Origin: JALSIF01 sp026981635 [NCBI: bacterium]
GTDB taxonomy: Bacteria > 4484-113 > JALSIF01
Length of the DNA stretch: 6,576 nucleotides
NCBI GenBank assembly: GCA_026981635.1
Contig: JALSIF010000012.1
Span: 1-6,576, forward strand
Reading direction: 5' to 3'
Below are positions 2 through 6,576 of the stretch, in pieces (within the stretch, counting starts at the first letter, position 1; each line of letters starts with the position of its first letter). A program made the position numbers and the translations under genes. The notes under the pieces are model-generated. The model was given only the letters and a program-made list of their open reading frames with translations. It was not told where the DNA came from and made no database searches.

Positions 2-61
2 GGCTGGAACCTGATCTTCGGCAGCCTGGTGCTCAGCTTCAAACAGGCGGGGGGGCTTTAG
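2..61 (+). CDS. C-terminal end of an unidentified plus-strand protein (partial)
   Basis: The frame is open from base 2 to a TAG stop at 59-61 and encodes the last 19 residues, GWNLIFGSLVLSFKQAGGL. Seventeen of the 19 codons end in G or C, as in the good genes of this window, which is the main reason to believe it. The peptide alternates hydrophobic and polar residues like a terminal beta strand (NLIFGSLVLSF), but it is too short to place in a family. A run of seven G (49-55) lies four codons before the stop, so a sequencing slip there would change the end. The gene converges on the minus-strand unit that ends at 131. The body of the gene lies outside the window, and no function can be given. 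Confidence 0.45.
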   Translation, partial: GWNLIFGSLVLSFKQAGGL

Positions 62-130: not shown

Positions 131-538
131 CTACTCCCCTTTCTCTTCTGCGTCCTGGTTTTGCTCAGGGTCCTTTTTGGGGTAGTCAAAGCCGATGGAC
201 TCCAGCACGGGGAGGACCAGGAAGTTGGCCGTTCCCTTCTCCTCCATGGTGCCAAACAGCTCGCTCAGGGCCTTCTTCAGGCGGGCAAGCTCCTCGTCGT
301 CGCGCAGGGCCACCATGAGCACCCGGTCCTCGTGCTTACGGGACTCAAACAGGCGCGACAGCGCACCCCCCACCGAAAAGTCGGTCACAAACTGGGAGTA
401 GGTATCGGAGGAGATGCCGCGGGAGGGGAAGGTGGTCACTCCGGTCACCTTCACCTCCAATACAAGCTTGGCCAGAAGCTCCTCCAGGCGGTCCAGCTCG
501 GAAAGGATGATCAAGCCCAAGTATTTCATCTTGGTCAT
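131..538 (-). CDS. P-II-like small regulatory protein encoded next to a cation antiporter
   Basis: This 135-residue soluble protein looks like a divergent member of the P-II (GlnB-like) ferredoxin-fold superfamily. Seen: a first strand and helix (MKYLGLIILSELDRLEELLAKL, residues 4-25), a second strand with TGVTTFPSRGIS (32-43) resembling the P-II 'GATVIDSRGMG' strand, a third strand DRVLMVALRD (71-80), a helix DEELARLKKALSELF (81-95) and a last strand NFLVLPVLESIG (105-116) resembling the P-II 'ilF.lPV..v.G' ending. The tail after 117 is charged and probably disordered (KKDPEQNQDAEEKGE). The T-loop region is short, and the canonical nucleotide-binding B-loop (TGKIGDGKI) is not recognisable, so its ligand is unknown. 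The ATG at 538 is supported by GGGAGGAGGT eight bases upstream. Only 2 bases separate it from the antiporter stop, so the two are very likely co-translated. Regulation of the antiporter is inference from P-II-type proteins paired with transporters. Confidence 0.8.
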   Translation of the reverse strand: MTKMKYLGLIILSELDRLEELLAKLVLEVKVTGVTTFPSRGISSDTYSQFVTDFSVGGALSRLFESRKHEDRVLMVALRDDEELARLKKALSELFGTMEEKGTANFLVLPVLESIGFDYPKKDPEQNQDAEEKGE

Positions 539-540
539 GG

Positions 541-1959
541 CTAGCTACCTCCTCCCGTCAGGGGGCCAGCCACCGCCGTTGGCGGCGCTTCACCGGAAGG
601 GGACCCCCCATCTCCCCCGTTCTTCTCATTCGGGGGAGTGAGGCTGAAAGCCCAGCGCAACAGGGGCGGAGTCACGAGAGTGGTGATCAGAACCATAAAC
701 ACCATGACTGAGAAGATCTCGCTGTCTATCACCCCTGAGCTAAGCCCGATGGAGGCGATGATCAGGCCCACCTCGCCGCGGCTGACCATCCCCACGCTGG
801 CCTGGAAGGCCTCCAGCTTCTTCATCCCCTGGGTGACCGCACCGATGTAGACCCCGCCGATCTTGCTTATGATCGCAAAGAATACAACCAAGAGAGCAAA
901 TCCAATTCCCGCCCAGTACTCCGTTGGTGATTTACCAGCGGGGAGAAAGACAGTTCTCAGGTCGGTCATAAGTCCAATACTGACAAAGAAGATTGGGACA
1001 AACAGTGAGTAGGTGATTGAGTGGAGCCTGGGTTCAATCTCCTCTCGGAGGTTGGAAAAGTTGGCAATCAAGAGCCCAAACATGTAGCTGCCGGTGATGG
1101 CAGCGACCGAACCGAGAAACTCTGCCGCCCAGCCGTAGAGCAAAGCGACCACCAGAGCTCCTGCGAGTAGACCCTCGGAGACCGGTAGCTGGCCGAACCA
1201 CTTAACGAATCTCAGAGCTACCGTTCTGAAGAGAATGACACCTAGCACAAAAAAGGCAACCATCATTATTACTAAGGTAACCACCGACAAGATGCTCACC
1301 ATCGGGCCACTAACCCCAGCAGCTTCAATCCAAGCAACTACATAGTCGTGGAGGATCTGTTTGCCCTCACCTACAAGATCGCTAGGCGCAAAGGCGACCA
1401 CAAGTGAGAGGATGAGTATCCCCAGGATGTCATCTATAACCGCCGCTCCCAGAATGGTGAGTCCGGGACGGGTGCGCAGCTTGCCCAGCTCAATCAGAGT
1501 CTGGGCGGAGATGGAAACCGACGTAGCAGTGAGGATCGTTCCGACAAAGATGGCAGTAAACCAGAGGTGCCTTTCTCCACCGAGAAAGCCTGCGAATAGC
1601 AGAAAGATTCCAAACCCTAGCAAGAATGGACCCAGGACTCCCCCGATAGCTCCCCAAAACGCTGGGCGACCAACTTTGAGAAGGGAGTTGAAATCAGTTT
1701 CTAACCCAGCCACAAACATAAGTAAGAGCACCCCAACCTCTGCAAGTAACACTACAAACTCAGTTACAACCTCATTGCTTCCGTGGAATTGAAAGATAGG
1801 CCAGCCTAGGAGGTTTATCAAGGTCGGACCCAAAAGCACGCCAATGAGAATCTCACCAAATACAGCTGGCTGGTGATAGCGGCTAGCCAGGGCTCCGGCC
1901 CATTTTGAAGCAAATATTATGATTGCTAAAAGCAGAAAAATGGCCAGTGCTAGTTTCAA
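541..1959 (-). CDS. CPA2-family (NapA/Kef-type) cation:proton antiporter
   Basis: This 472-residue integral membrane protein exchanges a monovalent cation (Na+ or K+) for H+. It has about 13 hydrophobic segments over residues 1-437, which fits the CPA2 fold. Seen: QPAVFGEILIGVLLGP (30-45) in an early helix; an unwound-helix region TATSVSISAQTL (144-155); the ion-binding Asp pair in AVIDD (D176, D177); SVAAITGSYMFGLLIAN (284-300); FFVSIGL (324-330); and SRGEVGLIIASIGL (393-406). K366 in ISKIGGV probably corresponds to the lysine that pairs with the second Asp in electrogenic NapA/NhaA proteins; this is alignment from memory. No RCK/TrkA domain follows. The tail (438-472) is Pro/Gly-rich and unlike a domain. 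The start is TTG at 1959 with AAGGAGGT four bases upstream. The gene lies 81 bases after hppA, with no terminator between. The first ~365 codons are clearly AT-richer than the last ~105. Na+ versus K+ specificity cannot be read. Confidence 0.9.
   Translation of the reverse strand: MKLALAIFLLLAIIIFASKWAGALASRYHQPAVFGEILIGVLLGPTLINLLGWPIFQFHGSNEVVTEFVVLLAEVGVLLLMFVAGLETDFNSLLKVGRPAFWGAIGGVLGPFLLGFGIFLLFAGFLGGERHLWFTAIFVGTILTATSVSISAQTLIELGKLRTRPGLTILGAAVIDDILGILILSLVVAFAPSDLVGEGKQILHDYVVAWIEAAGVSGPMVSILSVVTLVIMMVAFFVLGVILFRTVALRFVKWFGQLPVSEGLLAGALVVALLYGWAAEFLGSVAAITGSYMFGLLIANFSNLREEIEPRLHSITYSLFVPIFFVSIGLMTDLRTVFLPAGKSPTEYWAGIGFALLVVFFAIISKIGGVYIGAVTQGMKKLEAFQASVGMVSRGEVGLIIASIGLSSGVIDSEIFSVMVFMVLITTLVTPPLLRWAFSLTPPNEKNGGDGGSPSGEAPPTAVAGPLTGGGS
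547..556 (-). promoter_or_regulatory. Ribosome-binding site of the P-II-like gene, inside the antiporter gene
   Basis: The minus strand reads GGGAGGAGGT followed by an 8-base spacer and ATG. The site falls within the final Gly-Gly-Gly-Ser codons of the upstream antiporter (stop TAG at 543-541), so ribosomes finishing the antiporter uncover or occupy it. This layout indicates translational coupling and fixes the start at 538. Confidence 0.8.
571..587 (-). repeat. GC-rich hairpin in the antiporter tail codons
   Basis: On the minus strand CGCCGCC and GGCGGTG pair over 7 bp (one G-U in RNA) around an AAC loop. It lies about 15 bases upstream of the P-II-like gene's ribosome-binding site. No U-tract follows, so it is not an intrinsic terminator. 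It could influence coupling or mRNA stability, or it may simply reflect GC-rich low-complexity coding. Confidence 0.45.
612..638 (-). repeat. Perfect 8-bp inverted repeat in the antiporter tail codons
   Basis: CTCCCCCG (minus strand 638-631) and CGGGGGAG (619-612) form a perfect 8-bp stem around an 11-base A-rich loop. It sits where the antiporter leaves its last membrane helix and enters the Pro/Gly tail. The stem is followed by G-rich, not T-rich, sequence, so it is not a rho-independent terminator. A role in processing or in setting the antiporter/regulator ratio is possible but unproven. Confidence 0.5.
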
Positions 1960-2040: not shown

Positions 2041-4182
<2,142 letters not shown>

Positions 4183-4188
4183 GGCGCT

Positions 4189-4196
4189 ACCTCCTT
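4189..4196 (-). promoter_or_regulatory. Ribosome-binding site that sets the hppA start
   Basis: The minus strand reads AAGGAGGT, six bases before TTG 4182. The site lies inside the reading frame if translation is taken from the earlier TTG at 4203 (residues 2-5, PEGG), which argues strongly that the shorter 713-residue protein is the real one. Confidence 0.85.
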
Positions 4197-4232
4197 CAGG
4201 CAAGATGCTTCAAGCAGCTTCGCGTACCTATC

Positions 4233-4306: not shown

Positions 4307-6271
4307 TCAGCCACCACCCTCTAGCACTTCGCCAAGCCACTCCCGCTCTCCTCGGGCCAGCCTCTCCATGACCGGGGCAAGCTCATCGGGAGCCACCAGG
4401 GGGCTTGAGCACTGGCCATGGGTGCAGACCCAGGCGGTGGGGGAATCCCCCGCCTTGAAGGTGAGGGAGAGGAAGCGTTTGCCCAGGGTGGTTGAGCCGT
4501 CGTCGTTTTTCACTTCCTGCCTTGCCGAGTGGAAGAGCAGAGCCATGGCTGGAGTGGGACTTGCCCGGGCCACCTGCCAGAGGGAGACCAGCCGCTCCTC
4601 CTCAAGCAGTGCCCCTAGATCGGGCAAGGGGCTGACCAGGTGGAGGGTGAGGGGGTAGCGCTCTGCCTCCACCAGGGCGAGGGCATACTCACCGGCGTGG
4701 AAGGAGTAGGCGGGGATGACCGGAGCCAGCGCCCGAAGCAGGCGGCGGGAGAGGTTTCGCAGGCGGCGCATCTCAAGGAGATGACCCAGCCGGGCAAGCA
4801 GGCGGGCGGCGCGAATGTTCTCCATCACCGGGTGGGGACCCTTGGGGCGGCCATCCTCCCCGCCAAGCTCGGGCAGGCCGCCCAGGGCAAAGAGGGAGCG
4901 CTCCTGGTCAAGCAGAACCATCACCATGCGGTCGGCCAGGGCACCTACTAGGGTCACCTCTTCCTTGCTGGCGTCGGTTGCGGCCACCGCAACGCTGGCG
5001 GCAAGCATCCCCAGGTAGTCCTTGAACAGGTCGTGGGGGCCCTCTCCGGTGAGGGTGTGGGAGAGGCCGCTGTCGGGGTTGAAGACCTCCCCCAGCAGGC
5101 GGCGGCCAAGCTCTCCTCCCCTGAGGATGAGAGCGGGCCCGCCCAGGGCCATCCCCGCCTCCACCAATGCCAGGGCCAGCTCCCCATTGGGGCCGGTGTA
5201 GCGGTTCTGGTCCACCGCGGGGACCCCCAGCCGCAGGCGCTCCTCCTCGCCCAGGGGAAAGTAGTCCTCCCCGGGGACGAAGTCGGCCTGGGGGTCGTGG
5301 CTGCCCAGGTCGGCATCCTGGCTGTTCATGTAGCCCCACTCGGGGTGGGCCAAGAAGCGGTCCAGATAGGCCAGGGTCTGCTCTACCGCCCGGGCGTAGG
5401 CCTCCTCGCCCAAGAGCAGGTGGGCACGGGAATAGAGCTGGATAAGACGGGCCTGGTCAATGAGCAGCTTCTCGTAGTGGGGGCGGGAGAAGGCGGCGTC
5501 GGTGGAGTAGCGGAAGAAGCCGCCAAAGACCGGATCCTGGAGCCTTAGCAGACCGTCCAGGGCCAGCCGAGCCTCCTCCACCAACTGCCGGTCCGCCCAG
5601 GCGGCCCACAGGTAGAGCTCGTAGGCACCGGGGAGGGGGAACTTGGGCGGGCTGCCCAGACCGCCGTAGGCCCTGTCCAGCGCCCCGCGCACCGCTCCCA
5701 CCAGGGCAGGGACCATGCCCATTAGATCTCCCTCTTTCCCCTTTCCCTCAGCGGGAGGGGAAGGACCGGTAGCGGGCGAAGCGTGGGCGGCCTCCCTCAC
5801 CCTGGTGAGGATCTCCTCCCGCCGCTCCTCCCACAGGCGCTTTACCTCAGAAAGCCACATGTAGAGGGCGCGGGGGGGGACATAGCTCTGGGCACTAAGC
5901 ACCTCACCGGAGGGAAGCAGGATGGCGGTGGTGGGCCAGCCGGAGTGGAGGTAGCGGTCCTGCACGTCGGGCCGCTCATCACCGTCTACCCGGATGGGGA
6001 TGAAGTGGCGGTTGATGAGCTCAATGTTTGCTGGCTCGGAGTAGCTGGTCTCGTCCATCACGTGGCACCAGTGGCACCACTTGGCCGAGATGTCAAGGAG
6101 GATAAGTTTCCCCTCCCGCTCGGCCTCCTCCAGAGCCTCCCGCGACCAGGGGCGCCAGCCTATCTCGTGGTCCCGCTTCTGGCGTGGCCCGGGGGGGACG
6201 ATCCCCTCCAGGGCACCGGGCCTGCCTGAGGGGGAGGAGGAACCGCTTTCCGATGAATTAGTCATCTCCAA
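4307..6271 (-). CDS. Thioredoxin-fold DUF255 / YyaL-family protein with alpha/alpha-toroid domain
   Basis: This 654-residue protein has the two-domain layout of the DUF255 (YyaL/SPATA20-like) family. Residues ~38-150 are the thioredoxin-like domain: GWRPWSREALEEA, the active-site WCHWCH with C66 and C69, VDGDERPD (95-102), and the cis-proline GWP (111-113). Residues ~185-610 are helical and resemble a six-hairpin glycosidase-like toroid: YGGLGSPPKFPLP (202-214), GGFFRYSTDAAF (250-261), RPHYEKLLIDQARL (263-276), NSQDAD (316-321), GEDYFPL (334-340). The end has CTHGQCSSP (616-624), the usual C-terminal cysteine motif. The exact biochemical role is unsettled; thiol-disulfide chemistry is inferred from the CxxC. 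The loop before GWP is shorter than in the long-form family, and a Ser/Pro-rich 35-residue leader precedes the domain; no signal peptide is evident. TTG 6271 has AAAGAGGT nine bases upstream; ATG 6265 is two codons later but badly spaced. It follows the DoxX-like gene by 26 bases. Confidence 0.9.
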   Translation of the reverse strand: MEMTNSSESGSSSPSGRPGALEGIVPPGPRQKRDHEIGWRPWSREALEEAEREGKLILLDISAKWCHWCHVMDETSYSEPANIELINRHFIPIRVDGDERPDVQDRYLHSGWPTTAILLPSGEVLSAQSYVPPRALYMWLSEVKRLWEERREEILTRVREAAHASPATGPSPPAEGKGKEGDLMGMVPALVGAVRGALDRAYGGLGSPPKFPLPGAYELYLWAAWADRQLVEEARLALDGLLRLQDPVFGGFFRYSTDAAFSRPHYEKLLIDQARLIQLYSRAHLLLGEEAYARAVEQTLAYLDRFLAHPEWGYMNSQDADLGSHDPQADFVPGEDYFPLGEEERLRLGVPAVDQNRYTGPNGELALALVEAGMALGGPALILRGGELGRRLLGEVFNPDSGLSHTLTGEGPHDLFKDYLGMLAASVAVAATDASKEEVTLVGALADRMVMVLLDQERSLFALGGLPELGGEDGRPKGPHPVMENIRAARLLARLGHLLEMRRLRNLSRRLLRALAPVIPAYSFHAGEYALALVEAERYPLTLHLVSPLPDLGALLEEERLVSLWQVARASPTPAMALLFHSARQEVKNDDGSTTLGKRFLSLTFKAGDSPTAWVCTHGQCSSPLVAPDELAPVMERLARGEREWLGEVLEGGG

Positions 6272-6297: not shown

Positions 6298-6576
6298 CTA
6301 CTTCTTCCGGCTGGTCCGACGGTAGGCCTGGGCCAGGCGGCTGGCATCCAGGGAGGCGGAACCCGGCCCCATGATAAGCAGGGCGATGAGCGCCCCCATC
6401 AGGGCCAGGTGATAGCGGGCGGCGACCACAAGCTCCACCCAGCCCTCCAAGGTGCCGGGCAGACCGGCCATTAGGTAGTTGCGAAAGAGACCAGCCAGAG
6501 CCACCAGCAGAGCGGCGGCGGCCGCCTCGGAGGTGAGGAAACCTGCCATGAGCAGCAGGCCGGCCAGGGTCTGGAC
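6298..6576 (-). CDS. DoxX/DoxD-like membrane protein, C-terminal part (partial)
   Basis: The frame is open from the right edge of the window to a TAG at 6300-6298, giving the last 92 residues; the N-terminus is outside. An internal ATG at 6549 is not a likely start, because the preceding codons (VQTLAGLLL) continue a membrane helix. Seen: a helix LAGLLLMAGFL, a second AAAALLVALAGLFRNYLMAG, a polar stretch GTLEGWVELVVAARYH, a third LALMGALIALLIM, then GPGSASLDA and a basic tail (RRTSRKK). The final helix followed by G-x-G-x-x-SLDA is characteristic of the DoxX family, and the NYLMAG segment suits the DoxD-like (thiosulfate:quinone oxidoreductase small subunit) branch. Many such proteins are of unknown function, so an enzymatic role is not claimed. 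It is read just before the DUF255 gene (26-base gap, no terminator), so the two are probably one operon. Confidence 0.75.
   Translation of the reverse strand, partial: VQTLAGLLLMAGFLTSEAAAAALLVALAGLFRNYLMAGLPGTLEGWVELVVAARYHLALMGALIALLIMGPGSASLDASRLAQAYRRTSRKK

What the first reader, a model, noticed from the sequence alone, without database searches (positions are those of the whole stretch)
131..1959. P-II-like protein translationally coupled to a CPA2 antiporter: candidate undescribed transporter/regulator pair
Seen: a 135-residue P-II-like protein starts 2 bases after the antiporter stop, with its ribosome-binding site inside the antiporter's last codons. The antiporter lacks the RCK/TrkA regulatory domain that many CPA2 proteins carry. 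Known: P-II-type proteins are often encoded beside the transporter they regulate (GlnK-AmtB, SbtB-SbtA). Inference: this protein senses a metabolite or nucleotide and gates the antiporter in place of an attached domain. The missing canonical B-loop suggests an unusual ligand.
Basis: partly seen in the sequence, partly recalled or inferred. Interest (0 to 1): 0.62.

Follow-up and report, generated by a model that had tools for sequence, protein, structure and literature searches.

The report
P-II-like regulator coupled to cation antiporter
A small sensor-type protein of the P-II superfamily is encoded directly behind a cation–proton antiporter, and similar pairs, often with a phosphotransfer protein added, recur in many bacterial groups, which points to a little-noticed way of controlling ion balance.

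Summary
A 135-residue protein starts 2 bases after the stop of a CPA2-type antiporter that has no RCK/TrkA domain, with its Shine-Dalgarno sequence inside the antiporter's last codons. The protein has the P-II fold and belongs to a family whose profile matches solved PII proteins; the GDGK B-loop and SbtB's cysteines are absent. A profile found 70 homologues in 61 of 385 genomes: 39 lie within 2 kb of a PF00999 gene, all 39 on the same strand, about 0.4 expected. At least 36 lie near a PTS EIIA-2 gene; in eight, EIIA and PII-like domains share one open frame. Linked antiporters seldom lie in long frames (2 of 40, against 38 of 85 unlinked). The link is not obligate: 31 of 70 homologues have no antiporter within 2 kb, including this protein's three nearest relatives, and most close relatives of this antiporter lack the gene (4 of 34 have it). 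Best reading: a broad PII-like subfamily that gates cation antiporters as a separate subunit, with EIIA in many lineages but not here. Ligand and physical binding are inferred. My paper searches found no description.

The parts
131..538 (-). P-II-like protein, 135 aa, no cysteine; the core (about residues 5-117) has the P-II fold; low-confidence acidic C-terminal tail
   Evidence: family members by profile
541..1959 (-). CPA2-type cation/proton antiporter, 472 aa, PF00999 only, Gly/Pro-rich C-terminal tail, no RCK/TrkA domain detected
547..555 (-). Shine-Dalgarno sequence GGAGGAGGT of the P-II-like gene, inside the antiporter's last codons (stop TAG 541-543, ATG at 538)
2041..4203 (-). membrane pyrophosphatase (PF03030; NCBIfam 'sodium-translocating pyrophosphatase'), upstream in the same direction, 81 bases before the antiporter; true start perhaps the TTG at 4182
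   Evidence: the same order PPase > antiporter > P-II-like in L015
4240..4253 (-). terminator-like hairpin with T run upstream of the pyrophosphatase; may set the start of the transcription unit
   Evidence: 9 such sites found in the window, 5.9 expected by chance

Best explanation
The 135-aa protein is a divergent member of the P-II superfamily. Made by coupled translation with the antiporter, it most likely forms a trimer (inferred) that binds a small ligand in the clefts between subunits, most likely an adenyl nucleotide other than the ATP/2-oxoglutarate pair of classical PII (inferred), and docks its T-loop on the cytoplasmic face of the CPA2 antiporter to hold it closed until the ligand state changes (inferred from GlnK-AmtB, SbtB-SbtA and PtsN-YcgO). 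It does the work that fused RCK/TrkA domains do in other antiporters. In many other lineages a PTS EIIA-2 domain, separate or fused, joins the module and could add phosphorylation control; no EIIA-2 gene was found in the window's assembly or in the five held relatives that carry the protein, so here the P-II-like protein works without it. Shown: coupling, fold, recurrent same-strand linkage, EIIA linkage and fusion, frame-length contrast. Inferred: trimer, ligand, physical contact, sign of regulation.
For: Coupled start and Shine-Dalgarno. Model from a 4-row alignment (mean pLDDT 67.8, pTM 0.57): strand-helix-strand-(helices)-strand-helix-strand; Foldseek top rows are SbtB and PII (E 4.1e-4, prob 1.00), VIA-align Z about 10 to PII, GlnK, SbtB and CPII over 79-90 residues. 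Family profile against PDB: PII proteins from E 1.8e-6; 38 of 54 members match PF00543 at E<=0.01. 39 of 70 places within 2 kb of PF00999, all same strand, antiporter upstream in 29, in 27 of 44 family codes, 0.41 expected; without the three seed places of those 70, 36 of 67. On the tree of 54 members the link needs at least 10 changes (4 forced by well-supported branches), so it recurs. EIIA-2 within 2 kb of at least 36 of 70, with both partners in 26; eight EIIA-PII frames, four of them confirmed by Pfam. Frame length: 2 of 40 linked against 38 of 85 unlinked antiporters at 550 codons or more, Fisher p 3e-6. Precedent: unphosphorylated PtsN (an EIIA) binds and inhibits the K+/H+ antiporter YcgO (PMC11808508, abstract and passages).
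Against: 31 of 70 homologues have no antiporter within 2 kb; 21 have neither antiporter nor listed EIIA. The window protein's nearest relatives (G003, G006, G009) are unlinked, and in G003 and G006 the antiporter has no such neighbour. Two same-phylum genomes (G001, G005) have the antiporter and no detected P-II-like gene. Only 4 of 34 relatives of this antiporter with room downstream have the gene. Members also adjoin genes that look by eye like Mrp subunits, ClC, permeases and DUF1538, so the partner may not be the antiporter everywhere. The frame-length contrast does not correct for ancestry. No complex was modelled and no ligand is known.
Confidence: 0.66

Rival explanations
1. A general transporter-associated P-II subfamily whose main partner is the PTS EIIA protein: the P-II-like domain reads a metabolite and sets the phosphorylation or binding of EIIA, which in turn controls ion transporters; the antiporter is controlled only through EIIA.
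For: EIIA-2 lies within 2 kb of at least 36 of 70 members, and in 10 of these without an antiporter within 2 kb (one of the ten, G320, is at a contig end); eight EIIA-PII frames (Pfam on four). PtsN binds K+ transport proteins (PMC13104625, passages).
Against: No EIIA-2 match in G000, G002, G003, G004, G006 or G009, which carry the window-type protein (G000 is 85% complete).
Confidence: 0.17
2. The P-II-like protein has another target (an enzyme or transcription regulator), and operon membership only makes it respond to the same conditions as the pyrophosphatase-antiporter unit.
For: Unlinked members, among them the nearest relatives; members beside metabolic genes such as L110, L116, L118, L145.
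Against: The excess of immediate, same-strand linkage across 27 family codes and the frame-length contrast.
Confidence: 0.12
3. Metal or ion sensor in the manner proposed for CutA or PII-NG: binds the transported ion rather than a nucleotide and regulates the antiporter or its expression.
For: PII-NG clusters with the CzcABC proton/cation antiporter (PMC7726332, passages); the family lacks the nucleotide-phosphate-binding B-loop.
Against: No obvious metal-ligand motif: no cysteine in the window protein; the nearest folds include nucleotide-binding SbtB and CPII, though fold alone shows no ligand.
Confidence: 0.05

Closest known systems
SbtB-SbtA (cyanobacterial bicarbonate transporter and its PII-like regulator)
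   Same: PII-like fold and a gene beside its transporter; SbtB structures top the Foldseek list
   Different: Different transporter class; no CGPxGC redox loop (no cysteine in the window protein); no detectable sequence match to SbtB in the PDB search
GlnK-AmtB (canonical PII and ammonium channel)
   Same: P-II superfamily, transporter-linked; 38 of 54 members match PF00543 at E<=0.01
   Different: No GDGK B-loop, other T-loop, partner PF00999 instead of an ammonium transporter
PII-NG with CzcABC (PMC7726332, passages)
   Same: PII-type protein in an operon with a proton/cation antiporter
   Different: Partner there is an RND-type metal exporter of proteobacteria; here a CPA2 antiporter, often with EIIA-2
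PtsN-YcgO (PMC11808508, abstract and passages)
   Same: A soluble EIIA regulator inhibits a cation/proton antiporter by binding; EIIA is the recurrent partner of this PII-like family
   Different: No PII protein mentioned there (0 occurrences); YcgO is CPA1 with its own RCK and CorC domains; the window's lineage has no EIIA-2 match
KefC/KefB (CPA2 antiporters with attached RCK domain and ancillary KefF/KefG)
   Same: CPA2-type antiporter under soluble or attached control
   Different: The window antiporter has PF00999 only; regulator of a different fold
PstA/DarA (c-di-AMP-binding PII-like protein)
   Same: PII-like; weak phmmer echo of Lmo2692 (E 0.68); the window's assembly has a diadenylate cyclase
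   Different: Only 1 of 54 members touches the DarA model (E 0.0041), none the Pfam receptor family among the eight listed

Membership tests
P-II superfamily | ferredoxin-like beta-alpha-beta-beta-alpha-beta fold | tested here: met
   (model pLDDT 68; Z about 10 to PII, SbtB, CPII)
P-II superfamily | sequence relationship to PF00543 | tested here: met
   met for the family (38 of 54 members at E<=0.01; PDB profile E 1.8e-6); the window protein alone gives no match and is tied in by the family
P-II superfamily | homotrimer with ligand clefts | not testable with these tools
   single-chain prediction only
Canonical GlnB/GlnK | B-loop GDGK and 2-oxoglutarate/ATP-binding residues | tested here: not met
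   family GTGI, window GTAN at the GDGK columns
SbtB | C-terminal CGPxGC redox loop | tested here: not met
   no cysteine in the window protein
PstA/DarA | match to the c-di-AMP receptor models | tested here: not met
   window protein: no such match; family: 1 of 54 at E 0.0041
PII-NG | operon with an RND/CzcABC metal exporter | tested here: not met
   window neighbours are PF00999, H_PPase and a DUF255 protein; a sequence comparison with a PII-NG member was not made
CPA2 antiporter (PF00999) | Na_H_Exchanger domain | tested here: met
   E 2.2e-53; NCBIfam CPA2 model TIGR00932 150.8 bits, below its cut-off of 238.3
Antiporter-linked PII-like group (this report) | PF00999 gene within 2 kb on the same strand | tested here: met
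   met for the window; 39 of 70 family members overall

The most novel reading that the evidence does not exclude
Bacteria share an undescribed modular control system for cation/proton antiport, built from a CPA2 antiporter without RCK domain, a divergent PII-like sensor and, in many lineages, a PTS EIIA-2 domain that may be fused to the sensor. It couples nucleotide or metabolite state and PTS phosphorylation to Na+/K+/pH balance; the window shows an EIIA-less form combined with an ion-pumping pyrophosphatase.
Probability: 0.5. Interest if true: 0.76.

Novelty: new variant of a known kind. Interest (0 to 1): 0.6.

Why it matters
How antiporters without attached regulatory domains are controlled is open. 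A recurrent soluble PII-like partner, with EIIA-PII frames as natural linkers between the phosphotransferase system and ion transport, gives directly testable pairs in many bacteria. It would also place another branch of the P-II superfamily at ion transport rather than nitrogen control.

Tried and rejected
Chance adjacency: rejected by the tally and the small diadenylate-cyclase control (0 of 24). False ORF or non-PII fold: rejected by homologues and fold. An exclusive antiporter-regulator pair: rejected. Diadenylate cyclase as a clue to c-di-AMP: uninformative, since 345 of 385 genomes have it; G000 does have one.

Led nowhere: single-protein scan of genome contigs found no relative; the scan with alignment A1 could not run. 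Paper searches for a PII-like protein with CPA2 antiporter, EIIA, DUF1538, gene neighbourhood or PtsN found no description of this pairing; the library holds open-licence papers only, so subscription papers may have it. Papers seen: PMC4316997, PMC6516651, PMC10710835, PMC10117731, PMC7726332 and PMC13104625 as passages; PMC11808508 as abstract and passages; the rest as listings only.

Rows left out of counts: one search used 132 of the 135 PF00999 places (three fragments left out); one search used 125 of 135 (ten fragments or cut genes left out) and measures open frames between stops, not proteins. The tree and alignment A5 used 54 of the members in hand; near-copies and several divergent ones (for example L157, L158, L160, L162, L165, L166, L169) were left out. 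Profile A4 was built from 11 sequences, five of them antiporter-linked, which favours such members; three of these five are among the 70 places. In one search the ORF caller misassigned the antiporter in some loci and the output was cut; one search repeats that count with profiles, on all 40 loci. Of the 40, six had no room downstream; 4 of the remaining 34 (L021, L043, L045, L049) have a family member directly after the antiporter, and L021 is the same contig as G002:C121.

Full report
What is there. The window is a whole contig (G000:C12) of a 1.75-Mb assembly in 317 contigs, 85% complete, from a phylum for which only ten genomes are held. On the - strand lie, in order, a DUF255/thioredoxin-like gene (4307-6271), a membrane pyrophosphatase (2041-4203), the antiporter (541-1959) and the P-II-like gene (131-538). 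A terminator-like hairpin with seven Ts lies between the first two. The P-II-like ATG follows the antiporter's TAG by two bases, and its Shine-Dalgarno sequence GGAGGAGGT lies within the antiporter's last codons. The antiporter matches PF00999 only.

Is it P-II? Alone, the protein matches no curated model convincingly. Three genomes of the same class encode 33-36% identical proteins, and a profile of eleven homologues (A4) finds 70 places in 61 of 385 genomes at E<=1e-5. A 54-member profile matches solved PII proteins from E 1.8e-6, and 38 of 54 members match PF00543 at E<=0.01. A model from only four sequences (mean pLDDT 67.8) gives the P-II order of strands and helices and matches SbtB, PII, GlnK and CPII (Foldseek E 4.1e-4 for the best row; VIA-align Z about 10). 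At the canonical GDGK B-loop the family reads GTGI and the window GTAN. It has no cysteine, so no SbtB-type redox loop.

Is the pairing meaningful? Comparing the 70 places with the PF00999 places of the same genomes, 21 lie within 300 bases, 27 within 600 and 39 within 2 kb; all 39 are on the same strand and the antiporter is upstream in 29; random placement predicts 0.41 at 2 kb. The 39 come from 27 of 44 family codes. Three of the 70 places were in the seed alignment because of their linkage; without them it is 36 of 67. As a small control, 0 of 24 diadenylate-cyclase places were near PF00999 (capped list). On a tree of 54 members the link changes at least 10 times, 4 of them forced by well-supported branches. 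Linked antiporters lie in shorter open frames: 2 of 40 reach 550 codons, against 38 of 85 unlinked (Fisher p 3e-6; ancestry not corrected).

A third partner. PTS EIIA-2 genes lie within 2 kb of at least 36 of the 70 members (35 on the same strand); 26 have both EIIA and antiporter, 13 the antiporter only, 10 EIIA only, 21 neither (lower bounds for EIIA). In eight places EIIA and P-II-like domains share one open frame; Pfam confirmed EIIA-2 in the four examined (L149, L156, L159, L161). Seven of the eight follow an antiporter within 2 kb and the eighth (G320) starts at a contig end. In E. coli the EIIA protein PtsN binds the K+/H+ antiporter YcgO and inhibits it (PMC11808508). The window's assembly and the five held relatives that carry the protein show no EIIA-2 match, so the window represents an EIIA-less form.

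What speaks against a fixed pair. In the window's phylum the protein is beside the antiporter in G000, G002 and G004 but elsewhere in G003, G006 and G009 (in G009 the antiporter contig ends inside the gene, so its neighbour is unseen); all six phylum members except a second G002 copy form one supported clade. G001 and G005 have the antiporter but no detected P-II-like gene. Among 40 relatives of the antiporter in genome contigs, 34 have room downstream and 4 of these have the gene directly after it (L021, L043, L045, L049; L021 is the G002 contig). In four further loci (L023, L024, L041, L042) the profile touches what looks like canonical GlnK, beside ammonium-transporter-like genes by eye. 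Other members sit beside genes that look by eye like Mrp subunits, ClC, permeases and DUF1538. So the subfamily is linked to ion transport broadly, with CPA2 the commonest partner found.

How it most likely works. By analogy with GlnK-AmtB, SbtB-SbtA and PtsN-YcgO, a trimer would read a small ligand and block or release the antiporter through its T-loop. Absence of the B-loop makes the classical ATP/2-oxoglutarate switch unlikely; an adenyl nucleotide such as AMP, cAMP or c-di-AMP is my guess, and the diadenylate cyclase in G000 allows but does not favour c-di-AMP. Placement behind an ion-pumping pyrophosphatase, also seen in L015, suggests a unit that makes and spends an ion gradient. Trimer, ligand, contact and sign are inferred.

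Known or new. PII-like proteins beside transporters are a known kind (SbtB, GlnK, and PII-NG with CzcABC, PMC7726332). I found no paper describing this PII-like group with CPA2 antiporters and EIIA in the searches listed under Tried and rejected; coverage is limited to open-licence papers. I class it as a new variant of a known kind.

Noticed in passing
L149, L156-L159, L161, L162 (274-276 aa proteins): EIIA-2 and P-II-like domains in one protein directly after a PF00999 gene; Pfam run on L149, L156, L159 and L161 only
   Followed up: partly
L167, L168, L169: Genes that look like DUF1538 membrane proteins precede P-II-like genes; L169 holds two P-II-like repeats by eye, with PF00543 matched in the second half
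   Followed up: no
L114, L115, L126, L119: P-II-like genes near Mrp MnhE-like (L114, L115, L126) or ClC-like (L119) genes, by eye
   Followed up: no
L023, L024, L041, L042: Relatives of the antiporter in Acidobacteria lie 1-3 kb from what look like canonical GlnK genes beside ammonium transporters
   Followed up: no
window 2-61, + strand: End of a convergent gene (GWNLIFGSLVLSFKQAGGL, then stop), cut by the contig end
   Followed up: no
window 4182-4203, - strand: The pyrophosphatase start is probably the TTG at 4182; AAGGAGGT lies in the codons before it
   Followed up: no
window 6298-6576, - strand: 92-aa membrane-like fragment without a Pfam match, DoxX-like by eye, cut by the contig end
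   Followed up: no
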